Source: Thermotoga maritima MSB8
GTDB taxonomy: Bacteria > Thermotogota > Thermotogae > Thermotogales > Thermotogaceae
DNA: 64,000 nt
Assembly: GCF_000008545.1 (NCBI RefSeq)
Contig: NC_000853.1
Coordinates: 1,192,465-1,256,464, forward strand
Direction of reading: 5' to 3'
Below the pieces are notes generated by a model that had not been told where the DNA came from, did not search any database, and saw only the letters and a list, made by a program, of their open reading frames with translations. This document shows, piece by piece, positions 11,594 to 15,704 of the stretch. Position numbers and translations under genes: made by a program. Each line of letters starts with the position of its first letter. The stretch's first letter is position 1.

Positions 11594-11641
11594 TATCAAC
11601 CTTTTTTTCAACTTTTTCATTCATTTTACCATCGAGTCCAC

Positions 11642-11670
11642 TTGAAATTCAGGAAGGTATGTAGTACAAT
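11642..11670 (+). promoter_or_regulatory. Promoter of tRNA-Asn
   Basis: TTGAAA at 11642-11647 and TACAAT at 11665-11670 with an ideal 17-bp spacer. Transcription should begin near 11677, about 7 bp before the mature tRNA 5' end. Good match to the housekeeping sigma consensus. Confidence 0.8.
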
Positions 11671-11683
11671 TATCCGTGGAGGT

Positions 11684-11759
11684 TCCGGCGTAGCTCAACC
11701 GGTAGAGCGCCTGGCTGTTAACCAGGTGGTTGCAGGTTCGAGTCCTGCCGCCGGAGCCA
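11684..11759 (+). tRNA. tRNA-Asn (anticodon GTT)
   Basis: Cloverleaf readable by eye. Acceptor arm TCCGGCG (11684-11690) pairs with CGCCGGA (11749-11755), then discriminator G and an encoded CCA (11757-11759). The D-arm is GCTC...GAGC, the anticodon arm CCTGGCTGTTAACCAGG has anticodon GTT, and the T-arm is GCAGGTTCGAGTCCTGC. A T-run (CCATTTTTTTATTTT) follows directly and probably ends transcription. This tRNA forms the left border of the AT-rich segment carrying the KAP NTPase. Confidence 0.97.
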
Positions 11760-12140
11760 TTTTTTTATTTTATACCCTCCTTTTTTGGTATCCTCCACTT
11801 TGGTCACAGTTTTAAATCTTACTGTAGGAGTTGGCAAGATTGATATTTGTTTCAAACTCTTTCTAAGGTATACTTCCAACTTATCCATATATGAAAAATC
11901 AAACTCTATTTTTCGCTTGAAGGTTTGATGATAACGAGACCCTAAACTATTCTAAAACTATGATATCATTTGTGATGATAAATTCCAGCAAGTTAAAAAC
12001 TCTTCTTTTTGACAAGCAAGTGGTTAAACTTATGGAAGTTTTTAGAGAAATGATAAGCCAAGAAGCAGTTACAAAATATTTAAAAATTATTGAAACCAAC
12101 AAATGAGAGTCTGCCGTCGTTTATACAGGGGGGTAAAAGC
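11760..12140. other. AT-rich intergenic segment, left part of islet
   Basis: About 380 bp between tRNA-Asn and the KAP gene, clearly more AT-rich than the genes to the left. After the T-run that ends the tRNA transcript I see no second tRNA, no integrase and no long inverted repeat. A weak 5-bp stem (ATACC...GGTAT) occurs near 11775-11795. A 48-codon frame (11960-12106) is listed separately. No convincing -35/-10 pair for the KAP gene can be singled out because much of the stretch is A/T runs. Confidence 0.6.
11960..12106 (+). CDS. Possible 48-residue small protein upstream of KAP NTPase
   Basis: ATG-to-TGA frame of 49 codons giving a lysine-rich helical peptide (for example VVKLMEVFREMISQEAVTKY). 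It shares the AT-rich composition of the downstream gene and ends 34 bp before that gene's start. No ribosome site is visible before the ATG. An alternative in-frame ATG lies at 11975, and the frame is open a further 13 codons upstream. It could be a small partner of the KAP NTPase, a remnant of a larger gene, or chance. I do not recognise it. Confidence 0.3.
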   Translation: MISFVMINSSKLKTLLFDKQVVKLMEVFREMISQEAVTKYLKIIETNK

Positions 12141-14297
12141 ATGACTGAGAAAAAAATAATTCTTGCAGATGAACCTTTAAAATCTCCAGATCAAGACAAA
12201 CTGGGTTTTGCACCCTTTGCAAAAAGGATTGCTACTGTTATACAAAGTGTACAACTGAGGGAAAGCATAGTTTTTGCAGTATACGGTAAGTGGGGGTCTG
12301 GAAAAACAACTTTTATAAACTTTCTTACTTCTTATCTTAATCACGATAGCTCTATAACTATCGTCAAATTTGATCCTTGGTGGTTTAGTGAAAAAGAAGA
12401 CTTGATTCGACAATTCCTCAGCAACCTACAATTTACCTTAAATAAATCAACAAAGTTTAAAGATATTGCAAAAATGTTGAAACCTTATATAGAAACTCTT
12501 GGAGAGATTCCGAAATTTGGCTGGATTTTTAAAATAGCTAGCAGATTCAAAAAGAATTTGCAAAAAAGCGTTATTGAAACTAAAGAAGAAATCATCAATC
12601 GATTAAAAGAGAAAGACGGAAAAATAGTTGTAATAATAGATGATATAGATAGGCTCACAGCAAAAGAGATAAGAGAGCTTTTTACAATTGTTAAAGCAAT
12701 TGCAGATTTTCCAAATACTGTGTATATTCTTGCCTTTGATAAAGACATAGTGATAAGAGCTTTAGAGAAAGTACAGGAAGGAAAGGGTGAAGATTATTTA
12801 GAGAAAATTATTCAAATTCCCATAGAACTACCCTTAGCTGACAAAACTTCCATTAGAAAAATGTTGTTTGAAGAGCTTGACGCAGTACTGTCTGGAACAT
12901 CAAATGAACTTTTTGACTCCACCTACTGGAGGAATGTATATTGGGATGGAATCGATCCGTTTATTAATACGGTTAGAAATGTTAAAAGATTAATCAATAC
13001 GATAAGAGTAACCTATCCTTCTGTAAAAAATGAGGTTAATGCTGTAGATTTCATTGCTATCGAAACTCTTCGTGTTTTTTGTCCAGAAGTTTATAGTATT
13101 GTAAAAGATTATCCAGACATGTTTTGTGGATATAGTGGTGAAATCTATGATGTTTCACGACGTCACATAGAATTTTTAAAACAATTTCATCAAAATTGGT
13201 TATCTCGCTTAAACTTTCCAGATGATCTTAAAGAAAACATAAAAAACTTACTAAAGAGATTATTTCCTAAATTCGAAAGTGTTTTTGAAAACATCTATTA
13301 TGGACCAGATTGGGAGCGGGAATGGAGGAAAAAGTATAGAATATGCTGTAAAGAAATTTTCCCAAGGTTCTTTATTTTTTCTGTTCCGTCAGATGACTTA
13401 TCGAAACATGAAATGGATTTTATTTTGAGTTCTCTTCATAATAAAGAAGCTCTTATCGAACACTTAAAGCGCCTCGCTACACAAATTCGCTCTGACGGTT
13501 CTACAAGGCTCAGTATATTTTTAGAAAGAATGGAAGACTATGCTTCTGAAATTTCACAAGACTATATTCCAGTTGTTATTGAAGTTTTCTTTACTATAGG
13601 GGATAAACTCATAATCCCAGAAGATGAAAATAAAAGTTTTCTTATTCCTTGGGGAAACGATATTAGAATGGAAAGAATAATTTGGCGTCTTTTAAGGAGA
13701 TACGACAATAACAGTAAAAGATTTGAAGTCTTGAAAAACGCTTTTAAGAATGGACAGGCACTTTTTATGATGGTAAACGTGTTAATATTATTTTGGCAAC
13801 AACATAGAAAATACAGAGATGCCAAAGAATCTGATGCTATTTTACTGGATGAAAATCATTTAAAGACACTACAAGAGATAGTGTTAGACAAAATAAGAAA
13901 GGCGGTAGAAGAAGGCAGTTTGTTAAATACTCCTTCTCTTCCAGTTATTCTACATCAATGGCGAGAATGGGCAAATGAAGATGAAGTGAAGGAATGGGTA
14001 AAGGAAATCGTATTTTCAGATGAAAAACTACCGATATTCCTAACAAAATTTTTACAAAAAACGGTTTCATGGACAGAAACTAGTAGAGCGACTAATATTT
14101 ATTGGCAAATTGATCTAAATTGGTTGAAAGATTTTATAAATCTGGATTTTTTAGAGAAAAGATGCAATGAAATATTATCTAATGACTCGATTATTGGTAC
14201 ATTAGAAGATAAGCAAAAATTAGCCATAAGGCTCTTTTTGAATGAAAAAACTAAGAGTCTAGACAGCTCTACAGAAGAACAGGGGAAAGATGGTTGA
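12141..14297 (+). CDS. KAP-family P-loop NTPase (accessory gene)
   Basis: 718 residues from the ATG at 12141, which has CAGGGGGGTAAAAGC upstream; the in-frame ATG at 12090 has none. The N-terminus has the KAP layout: LADEPLKSPDQDKLGF, Walker A GKWGSGKT (49-56), FDPWWF (78-83), Walker B VVIIDDIDRL (163-172) and a sensor-like strand VYILAFD (194-200). KAP proteins often carry membrane helices between Walker A and B; none is evident here, so it is probably soluble or peripheral. The C-terminal 450 residues are helical and unrecognised. Base composition is much more AT-rich than either flank, which points to horizontal gain. KAP NTPases include the phage-exclusion protein PifA and QatA of the Qat defence system, so antiviral function is an inference worth testing. 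Confidence 0.88.
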   Translation: MTEKKIILADEPLKSPDQDKLGFAPFAKRIATVIQSVQLRESIVFAVYGKWGSGKTTFINFLTSYLNHDSSITIVKFDPWWFSEKEDLIRQFLSNLQFTLNKSTKFKDIAKMLKPYIETLGEIPKFGWIFKIASRFKKNLQKSVIETKEEIINRLKEKDGKIVVIIDDIDRLTAKEIRELFTIVKAIADFPNTVYILAFDKDIVIRALEKVQEGKGEDYLEKIIQIPIELPLADKTSIRKMLFEELDAVLSGTSNELFDSTYWRNVYWDGIDPFINTVRNVKRLINTIRVTYPSVKNEVNAVDFIAIETLRVFCPEVYSIVKDYPDMFCGYSGEIYDVSRRHIEFLKQFHQNWLSRLNFPDDLKENIKNLLKRLFPKFESVFENIYYGPDWEREWRKKYRICCKEIFPRFFIFSVPSDDLSKHEMDFILSSLHNKEALIEHLKRLATQIRSDGSTRLSIFLERMEDYASEISQDYIPVVIEVFFTIGDKLIIPEDENKSFLIPWGNDIRMERIIWRLLRRYDNNSKRFEVLKNAFKNGQALFMMVNVLILFWQQHRKYRDAKESDAILLDENHLKTLQEIVLDKIRKAVEEGSLLNTPSLPVILHQWREWANEDEVKEWVKEIVFSDEKLPIFLTKFLQKTVSWTETSRATNIYWQIDLNWLKDFINLDFLEKRCNEILSNDSIIGTLEDKQKLAIRLFLNEKTKSLDSSTEEQGKDG

Positions 14298-14319
14298 CTT
14301 CAATCCTGGTAGATTTCGA

Positions 14320-14622
14320 TCATTCAATAAGCAAGTATCTTTGAAGGAAACTGTACCATAGGAAAACTCCGACCGTAGAGTTACAAATTATTTCGATATA
14401 ACGGTTTCGATCTGTTAATCTTGCGCTAGCCCAGGGTTTCTGTTCCCTGAACTTACTCATTGCCGTCCACGATTCGATCAGATATCCTTCCACGTTTACA
14501 GTGTAGAAGAAGATGGAGAATATCAAAATGAACAGAGCGGTTGTTACCGCTATAGATGGAAGATAGTGCCTCAAATAAACAAAGATCGCAGATCCCCCCG
14601 AATCTGGAAATACCAACTTCAT
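14320..14622 (-). CDS. Doubtful small membrane protein or gene remnant
   Basis: A 100-codon frame between the KAP gene and galK. It encodes one clear hydrophobic segment (SIAVTTALFILIFSIFFYTV) and a second weaker one near the C-terminus (NSTVGVFLWYSFLQ). The ATG at 14622 lies only about a dozen bases past the galK terminator and lacks a ribosome site. No better internal start is seen. Base composition is intermediate between the islet and the native flank. It may be a real small membrane protein, a truncated remnant left by the insertion event, or spurious. Not recognised. Confidence 0.35.
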   Translation of the reverse strand: MKLVFPDSGGSAIFVYLRHYLPSIAVTTALFILIFSIFFYTVNVEGYLIESWTAMSKFREQKPWASARLTDRNRYIEIICNSTVGVFLWYSFLQRYLLIE

Positions 14623-14626
14623 TTTA

Positions 14627-14653
14627 ACAAAAAAGGGAGCTCATGGCTCCCTT
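14627..14653 (-). terminator. Rho-independent terminator of the gal operon
   Basis: Stem AAGGGAGC / GCTCCCTT (14633-14640 with 14646-14653), loop of 5, followed on the minus strand by TTTTTTGTT. It begins at the galK stop codon itself and ends the long galactan/galactose transcript. Confidence 0.85.
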
Positions 14654-15704
14654 AGATTTTTTGAACACCGTCTGAACTCTCTATCTCGTGGAAGATGAGA
14701 TCTATCCCGAAACGCTTCCTGTAAGACTCCACCAGCTCTTCTTTTATCTTCCCAAAAGCCCCCTTCTTTGAAAGAACGATCACTCCCCCTCCGAATCCGC
14801 CACCGACCATCCTCGCACCGAGGATACCTTCCTTTCCTCTCAAATAATCCACGATGAAATCCGTTTCCTCGCAGGAAACTTCGTACAGGTCTCTGAGACT
14901 CTCGTGAGAAGAAAAGAGCAGTTTTCCAAGGGTTTCAAAATCTCCTTCTTTCAAAGCCTGAACACTTTTCAGGACTCTTTCGTTTTCTTCGAGCACGTGC
15001 TGGGCACGTTTTCTCAGGGTGCCTGAGAGTCTTTCGAGATCTTCTTTTGTCACTTCTCGAAAGCTCTTTTTCTCAAGCGTTTTCAGTACCTCTTCGCACT
15101 CCTGTCTTCTTCTGTTGTACTCCGAAGAGGAGAGCTCGTGTTTAACGTTCGAGTCGACGAGGTTGATCTCGTAACCCTCCAATTTCAGAGGAACGTACTC
15201 GTACTCGAGCGTCATCGTGTCCAGAAAGATCGCGTGGTCTTTCTTTCCAAAAACGGCCGTGAACTGGTCCATGATGCCACACCTGACCCCCACGAACTCC
15301 ACTTCGGCTTCACGAGCGATCTTTACGAGTTCGAGTTTCGGAACGTTGAAACCGAAATATTCTGAAATCGCGTAAGCGGTCGCCACCTCGAGAGCGGCGG
15401 AACTGGAAAGACCCGCTCCTATGGGAAGATTGGAAGAAACGGAGATTTTAACAGGAGACACCCTGTAGCCCCTTTTTTCAAAAGAAGCGATGACTCCAGA
15501 GATGTAATCCGTCCATTTGTTGAGTTTCTCTATCTTTTCCATCTCCACCGTTTCGTTTACGTTTTCTGAGTGGAAGATGAATCTCTCTGAACCTTCTATC
15601 GAGAGAAACACGTATCTATTCACCGCAAACGGCAGAACGTAACCATCGTTGTAGTCGGTGTGCTCCCCGATGATGTTTATTCTTCCTGGTGCCTTCACTT
15701 TCAT
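14652..15704 (-). CDS. galK: Galactokinase
   Basis: 350 residues from the ATG at 15704, which overlaps the galT stop (ATGA). A longer upstream frame exists but lies inside galT. It phosphorylates galactose with ATP to galactose 1-phosphate, the entry step of the Leloir pathway. The GHMP-kinase motifs are complete: N-terminal galactokinase signature GRINIIGEHTDYNDGYVLP, ATP loop PIGAGLSSSAALEVA, catalytic-region VGVRCGIMDQF, and C-terminal RMVGGGFGGGVIVL. Last gene of the operon; the terminator stem starts at its stop codon. Confidence 0.97.
   Translation of the reverse strand: MKVKAPGRINIIGEHTDYNDGYVLPFAVNRYVFLSIEGSERFIFHSENVNETVEMEKIEKLNKWTDYISGVIASFEKRGYRVSPVKISVSSNLPIGAGLSSSAALEVATAYAISEYFGFNVPKLELVKIAREAEVEFVGVRCGIMDQFTAVFGKKDHAIFLDTMTLEYEYVPLKLEGYEINLVDSNVKHELSSSEYNRRRQECEEVLKTLEKKSFREVTKEDLERLSGTLRKRAQHVLEENERVLKSVQALKEGDFETLGKLLFSSHESLRDLYEVSCEETDFIVDYLRGKEGILGARMVGGGFGGGVIVLSKKGAFGKIKEELVESYRKRFGIDLIFHEIESSDGVQKI

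What the first reader, a model, noticed from the sequence alone, without database searches (positions are those of the whole stretch)
11760..14622. AT-rich KAP NTPase islet next to tRNA-Asn
Between tRNA-Asn and the galK terminator lies about 2.9 kb whose first 2.5 kb is much more AT-rich than either side. It carries one large KAP-family NTPase gene and possible small frames, with no integrase or IS. As I recall, the gene order on both sides matches T. maritima, where this position has no such gene. KAP NTPases include phage-exclusion PifA and QatA of the Qat defence system, so this could be a compact defence gene. The 450-residue C-terminal part has no domain I recognise and may be a new effector.
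Basis: partly seen in the sequence, partly recalled or inferred. Interest (0 to 1): 0.72.

Follow-up and report, generated by a model that had tools for sequence, protein, structure and literature searches.

The report
PifA-like defence gene beside tRNA-Asn
Thermotoga maritima carries one recently acquired, low-GC gene that is a full-length relative of PifA, the protein by which the E. coli F plasmid excludes phage T7; it sits beside a tRNA gene where other Thermotoga species carry other antiviral genes, so it is probably a defence gene of a known family and not a new effector.

Summary
The islet is real: a 718-codon KAP NTPase gene (12141-14297, +) at 32.6% GC and 26% GC3, against window medians of 47.6% and 54.4%. 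The gene is absent from the six other Thermotoga species held; four have a diguanylate cyclase (GGDEF) gene there, and remnants of that gene lie to the right of the KAP gene. The protein matches PADLOC's PifA model from end to end (E 3e-113), and its C-terminal half aligns with F-plasmid PifA (hhalign E 3e-16). So the C-terminus is the PifA-family alpha-solenoid, not a new domain. Closest relatives are a Thermoanaerobacter copy flanked by restriction-modification and ApeA-like genes, and a Thermococci archaeon copy. Four other relatives sit inside DISARM operons. The same tRNA-Asn site holds type III-F CRISPR, Mrr and GmrSD-like genes in a second Thermotoga species, and a cas6 gene in a third. 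Best reading: a horizontally acquired, stand-alone PifA-like anti-phage ATPase at a defence-gene site. Phage exclusion itself is untested. New member of a known kind, moderate interest.

The parts
11684..11759 (+). tRNA-Asn (GTT), left edge of the variable site
   Evidence: ARAGORN; the same tRNA in the same place in the other six Thermotoga genomes
11771..14333 (.). Acquired islet (left edge 11771-11787, right edge 14298-14334)
   Evidence: Homology to relatives ends at 11770-11786 and resumes at about 14334; right edge: match to G001 and G005 reached by 0 of 500 shuffles; GC 30-34%
12127..12134 (+). Ribosome-binding site AGGGGGGT
   Evidence: read directly from the sequence
12141..14297 (+). 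PifA-like KAP NTPase gene, 718 aa
   Evidence: Pfam KAP_NTPase E 7e-85; PADLOC PifA E 2.9e-113, protein 8-683 on profile 6-703 of 720
12285..12308 (+). Walker A, GKWGSGKT (residues 49-56)
   Evidence: G49, W51, G52, G54, K55 invariant in 48 homologues
12633..12656 (+). Walker B, IDDIDRL region (residues 165-172)
   Evidence: D167 and R171 invariant, D168 and D170 nearly so
13086..14294 (+). C-terminal helical solenoid, residues 316-718
   Evidence: AlphaFold2 pLDDT 92.2; hhalign to F PifA 437-730, E 2.6e-16
14334..14378 (-). Remnant of the GGDEF gene, C-terminal piece (residues 478-492 of the G001 protein)
   Evidence: tblastn 73% over 15 aa, E 0.10, in the expected place; DNA 78.7% over 47 bp
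14430..14622 (-). Remnant of the GGDEF gene, N-terminal piece
   Evidence: 75% over 44 aa, E 9e-15; DNA 88.8% to G001

Best explanation
The islet is a one-gene insertion carrying a full-length PifA-family KAP NTPase, acquired horizontally (probably from a thermophile of Thermoanaerobacter type) next to tRNA-Asn, at a site that Thermotoga species use repeatedly for antiviral genes. Shown: family membership over the full length, intact ATPase motifs, foreign composition, absence from congeners, purifying selection between close copies, and defence-gene surroundings of relatives and of the site. Inferred: it is a stand-alone anti-phage (or anti-plasmid) protein. Mechanism, inferred: the AAA+-like KAP domain (residues about 20-315) binds ATP and probably oligomerises; the C-terminal alpha-solenoid (316-718) acts as the sensor and partner surface that recognises a phage product; nucleotide-driven assembly then stops the infection by an abortive response, as proposed for PifA. 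The protein has no predicted transmembrane segment of its own, so any membrane action would be peripheral.
For: PADLOC PifA end to end, E 2.9e-113. Direct blastp to F PifA 22% over 689 alignment columns, E 6e-34. C-terminal profile to F PifA E 2.6e-16. Walker A and B conserved. Absent from six congeners and found in 2 of 103 Thermotogota genomes, one of them broken. Outlier codon use. Ka/Ks about 0.22 to the Thermococci copy. Thermoanaerobacter copy flanked by a type II R-M set and a PDC-S58/ApeA-like gene. Four relatives inside drmD-drmMI-[KAP]-drmA operons. Relatives on 1,049 plasmid records and 50 viral contigs. Same site: type III-F CRISPR, Mrr, PDC-S26 and GmrSD-N in G003, Cas6b in G004. 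The ATPase core is structurally closest to RdrA of the RADAR defence system, Z 16.7 against about 13 for ORC/Cdc6.
Against: No experiment was possible, and nothing here identifies a trigger or an effect. Sequence identity to the one tested member is only 22%. PifC, the partner of PifA on F, is missing. F PifA protects against few phages, and later authors suggest it may not have evolved as immunity (PMC8594841). The surroundings of relatives were sampled, not tested against a control set of genes, and most relatives examined are not in a recognisable defence cluster.
Confidence: 0.6

Rival explanations
1. A PifA-like protein whose main role is not immunity, for example regulation or maintenance of a mobile element (plasmid or prophage) from which it was cut loose; phage exclusion would be a side effect.
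For: Many relatives are on plasmids and viral contigs. BASEL authors note that PifA hits very few phages and may have other functions (PMC8594841).
Against: The T. maritima gene stands alone in a chromosome without other element genes, and relatives occur inside DISARM operons and next to R-M genes.
Confidence: 0.2
2. A leftover of a larger multi-gene defence system (DISARM-like or Qat-like) whose partners were lost, so that the gene alone does nothing now.
For: Four relatives are embedded in DISARM operons; the locus shows deletions, since the GGDEF gene beside it is reduced to two remnants.
Against: The closest relatives (Thermoanaerobacter L060, Thermococci L079) are not in DISARM operons, and F PifA acts without DISARM genes. 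The ORF is intact with a good RBS.
Confidence: 0.12
3. A recently acquired, neutral gene on its way to decay.
For: The Thermoanaerobacter and G060 copies are frame-broken, showing that copies are easily lost; composition is not ameliorated.
Against: All 718 codons are open, motifs are intact, and Ka/Ks is about 0.22 to the Thermococci copy, although part of that selection may pre-date the transfer.
Confidence: 0.08

Closest known systems
PifA of the E. coli F plasmid (phage T7 exclusion; L055:12446-14671)
   Same: Full-length homology: KAP NTPase domain plus the same C-terminal helical region; similar length (718 against 741 aa); no strong transmembrane segment by hydropathy in either.
   Different: 22% identity; no pifC upstream; chromosomal in a hyperthermophile; the T7 triggers (gp1.2, gp10) are not expected here.
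KAP gene of Thermoanaerobacter thermocopriae (L060) and of a Thermococci archaeon (L079)
   Same: About 60% and 63% identity over the aligned parts; group support 0.999 in the tree.
   Different: L060 is split by a frameshift in a draft assembly whose neighbouring methyltransferase is split too, and lies in an R-M/ApeA-like cluster; L079 is cut by a contig end beside a respiratory complex I operon.
KAP gene inside DISARM operons (L059, L062, L063, L073)
   Same: 35-38% identity over most of the length, same 22-member clade in the tree.
   Different: They are flanked by drmD, drmMI, drmA and drmB; the T. maritima gene has no partners.
QatA of the Qat defence system
   Same: KAP NTPase domain.
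   Different: 52.6 bits against the NCBIfam cut-off of 600; matches are partial; no qatBCD neighbours.
RdrA of the RADAR defence system
   Same: Predicted ATPase core plus first helices superpose (Z 16.7, rmsd 4.5, 339 residues).
   Different: 15% identity; no RdrB deaminase gene in the islet; the C-terminal region beyond about residue 400 is not covered.

Membership tests
PifA family (PADLOC PDLC02361) | Match to the PifA model along its whole length | tested here: met
   E 2.9e-113, profile 6-703 of 720; F PifA itself scores 963 bits against 378 here
PifA family (PADLOC PDLC02361) | PifA-type C-terminal region beyond the KAP domain | tested here: met
   hhalign of the C-terminal profile against F PifA 437-730, probability 98.7, E 2.6e-16
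PifA family (PADLOC PDLC02361) | Intact Walker A and Walker B | tested here: met
   GKWGSGKT and IDDIDRL, conserved positions in 48 homologues
PifA family (PADLOC PDLC02361) | Exclusion of a phage | not testable with these tools
   needs infection assays
F-plasmid pif operon (pifC-pifA) | pifC repressor gene adjacent, as on F | tested here: not met
   No other gene in the islet; so it is a member of the protein family, not a pif operon
KAP NTPase superfamily (PF07693) | Score above the Pfam cut-off | tested here: met
   285 bits against a cut-off of 20
KAP NTPase superfamily (PF07693) | Transmembrane segments inserted between Walker A and B (common in the superfamily, not universal and not defining; from memory) | tested here: not met
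   Highest 19-residue hydropathy in that region 1.33; some relatives reach 1.9-2.5
Qat system | QatA above its curated cut-off with qatB, qatC, qatD beside it | tested here: not met
   52.6 bits against 600; no neighbours in the islet
DISARM | drmA and drmB present with drmMI/drmD | tested here: not met
   None in the islet; only relatives elsewhere are in such operons
RADAR (RdrA) | RdrA full-length fold with an rdrB gene beside it | tested here: inconclusive
   ATPase core superposes with Z 16.7, C-terminal part not covered, no rdrB in the islet
tRNA-integrated mobile element | Integrase and a duplicated tRNA 3' end at the far side | tested here: not met
   No integrase ORF and no repeat of the tRNA end among the repeats of 11600-14700

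The most novel reading that the evidence does not exclude
PifA-like KAP ATPases form a widespread antiviral family in bacteria and archaea, working both as single genes (T. maritima) and as a built-in component of DISARM operons, with the helical C-terminal solenoid as a common phage sensor; and the tRNA-Asn site in Thermotoga is a genus-wide defence-gene hot spot.
Probability: 0.35. Interest if true: 0.55.

Novelty: new member of a known kind. Interest (0 to 1): 0.4.

Why it matters
It gives the type species of Thermotoga, for which I know of no isolated phage, a concrete candidate antiviral protein that is presumably thermostable, has no predicted transmembrane segment and is confidently modelled, and so is a practical subject for working out how PifA acts, which is still poorly understood. 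It also points to one tRNA-Asn site to inspect for antiviral genes in any new Thermotoga genome, and to KAP proteins as members of some DISARM operons.

Tried and rejected
tRNA-end duplication at the right edge of the islet: none. Upstream small ORFs as partner genes: homology to the closest relatives stops just upstream of the KAP start. A GGDEF remnant on the left of the KAP gene beyond the T-rich stretch: not better than shuffles against three of four relatives, 41 of 500 shuffles reach it against the fourth. Weak hits of the protein in other Thermotogales (E 1e-6 to 1e-4) are partial matches over the P-loop part in ORFs of other lengths, and the 64-residue hit shared by G000, G001 and G002 lies in a 126-residue frame. 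Solved structures by sequence: only P-loop matches, E about 0.002. C-terminal fold in the PDB: no Foldseek match at E 0.001 or below; best VIA-align Z 7.6, generic alpha-solenoids, which does not show that the fold is new. Viral fold library: ATPase-core matches only. Recurrent partner gene among 80 relatives: none apart from the DISARM set. A maximum-likelihood tree did not finish; FastTree was used. Literature on T. maritima locus tags for this gene: none found (the tags were guessed from memory).

Full report
Observation. The window holds tRNA-Asn(GTT) at 11684-11759, followed by a stretch of 30-34% GC that ends near 14300, against 42-52% on both sides. It contains one gene, 718 codons from ATG 12141 with AGGGGGGT just upstream to the stop at 14295-14297. 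Among 44 non-overlapping ORFs of the window it has the lowest GC3 (26%, median 54%) and the second largest codon-usage distance (0.305, median 0.134). There is no integrase or IS in the islet.

Which genome. The genome that holds the window is a single contig of 1,860,725 bp. AE000512, T. maritima, is listed with exactly that length in PMC2412878.

The site in other Thermotoga species. All seven Thermotoga genomes held share the flanks, but only this one has the KAP gene. In G001 and G006, tRNA-Asn and galK are separated by one gene of 516-533 codons on the minus strand; in G002 the same gene is split into two overlapping frames. It is a diguanylate cyclase: GGDEF E 8e-31. In G005 its middle and front are replaced by a TnpB-like ORF of an IS605-type element (identification by eye). 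In T. maritima it is a ruin: residues 1-44 survive at 14574-14443 (75% identity, E 9e-15) and residues 478-492 at 14378-14334 (73%, E 0.10, but where expected and supported at DNA level). So the KAP gene was inserted between the tRNA and the 3' end of the GGDEF gene, and the GGDEF gene lost its middle. The right edge at about 14334 is firm (0 of 500 shuffles) and could reach 14298; the left edge lies at 11771-11787.

A recurrent insertion site. In G003 the same interval is about 17 kb long and begins with two tRNA-Asn genes 6.2 kb apart, the first with an altered acceptor end. Between and after them lie type III-F CRISPR genes (Cas10 E 1e-235, Cas5, Cas11, Cas7), a type IV Mrr enzyme, a PDC-S26 candidate and a GmrSD N-terminal domain protein. 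In G004 a contig ends shortly after tRNA-Asn within a Cas6b gene. So three of seven species carry antiviral or probable antiviral genes at this one tRNA. I did not measure how variable other tRNA sites are, so 'hot spot' is a description, not a statistic.

What the protein is. Pfam KAP_NTPase covers residues 23-294 (E 7e-85). PADLOC's PifA model matches residues 8 to 683 and covers 6-703 of 720 profile positions (E 2.9e-113). F-plasmid PifA, fetched from NC_002483, scores 963 bits on the same model and aligns directly with the window protein at 22% identity over 689 alignment columns, E 6e-34. To check that this is more than the ATPase domain, I built a profile of the C-terminal part alone from 47 family sequences without F PifA and compared it with F PifA: 275 columns, PifA residues 437-730, E 2.6e-16. 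The 'new effector' is therefore the shared PifA-family C-terminus.

Closest relatives and their surroundings. Thermoanaerobacter thermocopriae (60%) and a Thermococci archaeon (63% over the 247 residues before its contig ends) group with the T. maritima protein with support 0.999. The Thermoanaerobacter copy lies next to a type II restriction enzyme, a cytosine methyltransferase, a nicking endonuclease and a PDC-S58/ApeA-like protein; it is frameshifted in a draft in which the methyltransferase is split too, so sequencing error is possible. Only 1 of 20 genomes of that family has the gene, and 2 of 103 in Thermotogota, the second broken: a patchy, horizontal pattern. Within the 22-member clade with support 0.999, four copies (L059, L062, L063, L073) lie inside operons with DrmD, DrmMI and DrmA models at very low E-values. 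Ka/Ks between T. maritima and the Thermococci copy is about 0.22.

Structure. The full-length model has mean pLDDT 89.8 and the C-terminal part alone 92.2. The ATPase core superposes best on RdrA of RADAR (Z 16.7, 339 residues), ahead of ORC/Cdc6 at about Z 13; RdrA forms heptamers (PMC9994260). The C-terminal part is a helical solenoid with only generic matches (Z up to 7.6). There is no predicted transmembrane segment. Published work on F PifA reports that sensitivity of T7 depends on phage gp1.2 and, in part, capsid protein gp10, and that membrane depolarisation has been proposed, but also that very few phages are affected (PMC8594841; PMC11990801).

How it probably works. Shown: an intact KAP ATPase with the PifA C-terminus. 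Inferred by likeness to STAND/AAA+ antiviral ATPases: ATP-dependent assembly and recognition of a phage product by the solenoid, ending in an abortive response. I rate defence as the role at about 0.7 and this particular mechanism lower; the overall statement at 0.6.

Novelty. A new member of a known kind. The two points that go beyond bookkeeping are the repeated use of one tRNA-Asn by antiviral genes in Thermotoga and the presence of PifA-like KAP genes inside DISARM operons. A search of open papers for DISARM together with KAP listed no title or abstract on this, which is weak evidence of novelty.

Noticed in passing
L044:2070-2145 and L044:8265-8340 (Thermotoga species G003): Two tRNA-Asn genes 6.2 kb apart; the first has an altered acceptor end (CCGCCGTTGCCA for CCGCCGGAGCCA). 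The segment between them carries type III-F CRISPR effector genes, as if that module had entered at the tRNA.
   Followed up: partly
L059, L062, L063, L073: A PifA-like KAP gene lies inside DISARM operons (drmD, drmMI, KAP, drmA, drmB) of several bacteria.
   Followed up: partly
window 14334-14622: The GGDEF (diguanylate cyclase) gene that other Thermotoga have between tRNA-Asn and galK is reduced to two remnants in T. maritima, and interrupted by a TnpB-type ORF in G005.
   Followed up: yes
L044:12825-14011: PDC-S26-like nuclease gene in G003 is split into two overlapping frames, probably a frameshift.
   Followed up: no
window 11960-12106: A 48-codon frame upstream of the KAP gene (MISFVMINSSKLKTLLFDKQ...) with no counterpart upstream of the closest relatives.
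   Followed up: no
L047:6711-8914 (G060, same class): The only other PifA-like gene in 103 Thermotogota genomes is broken by a frame change near residue 350.
   Followed up: partly
G000:C1:644942-645460 (-): A second, weak KAP_NTPase match (26 bits, E 3e-6) elsewhere in the T. maritima genome.
   Followed up: no
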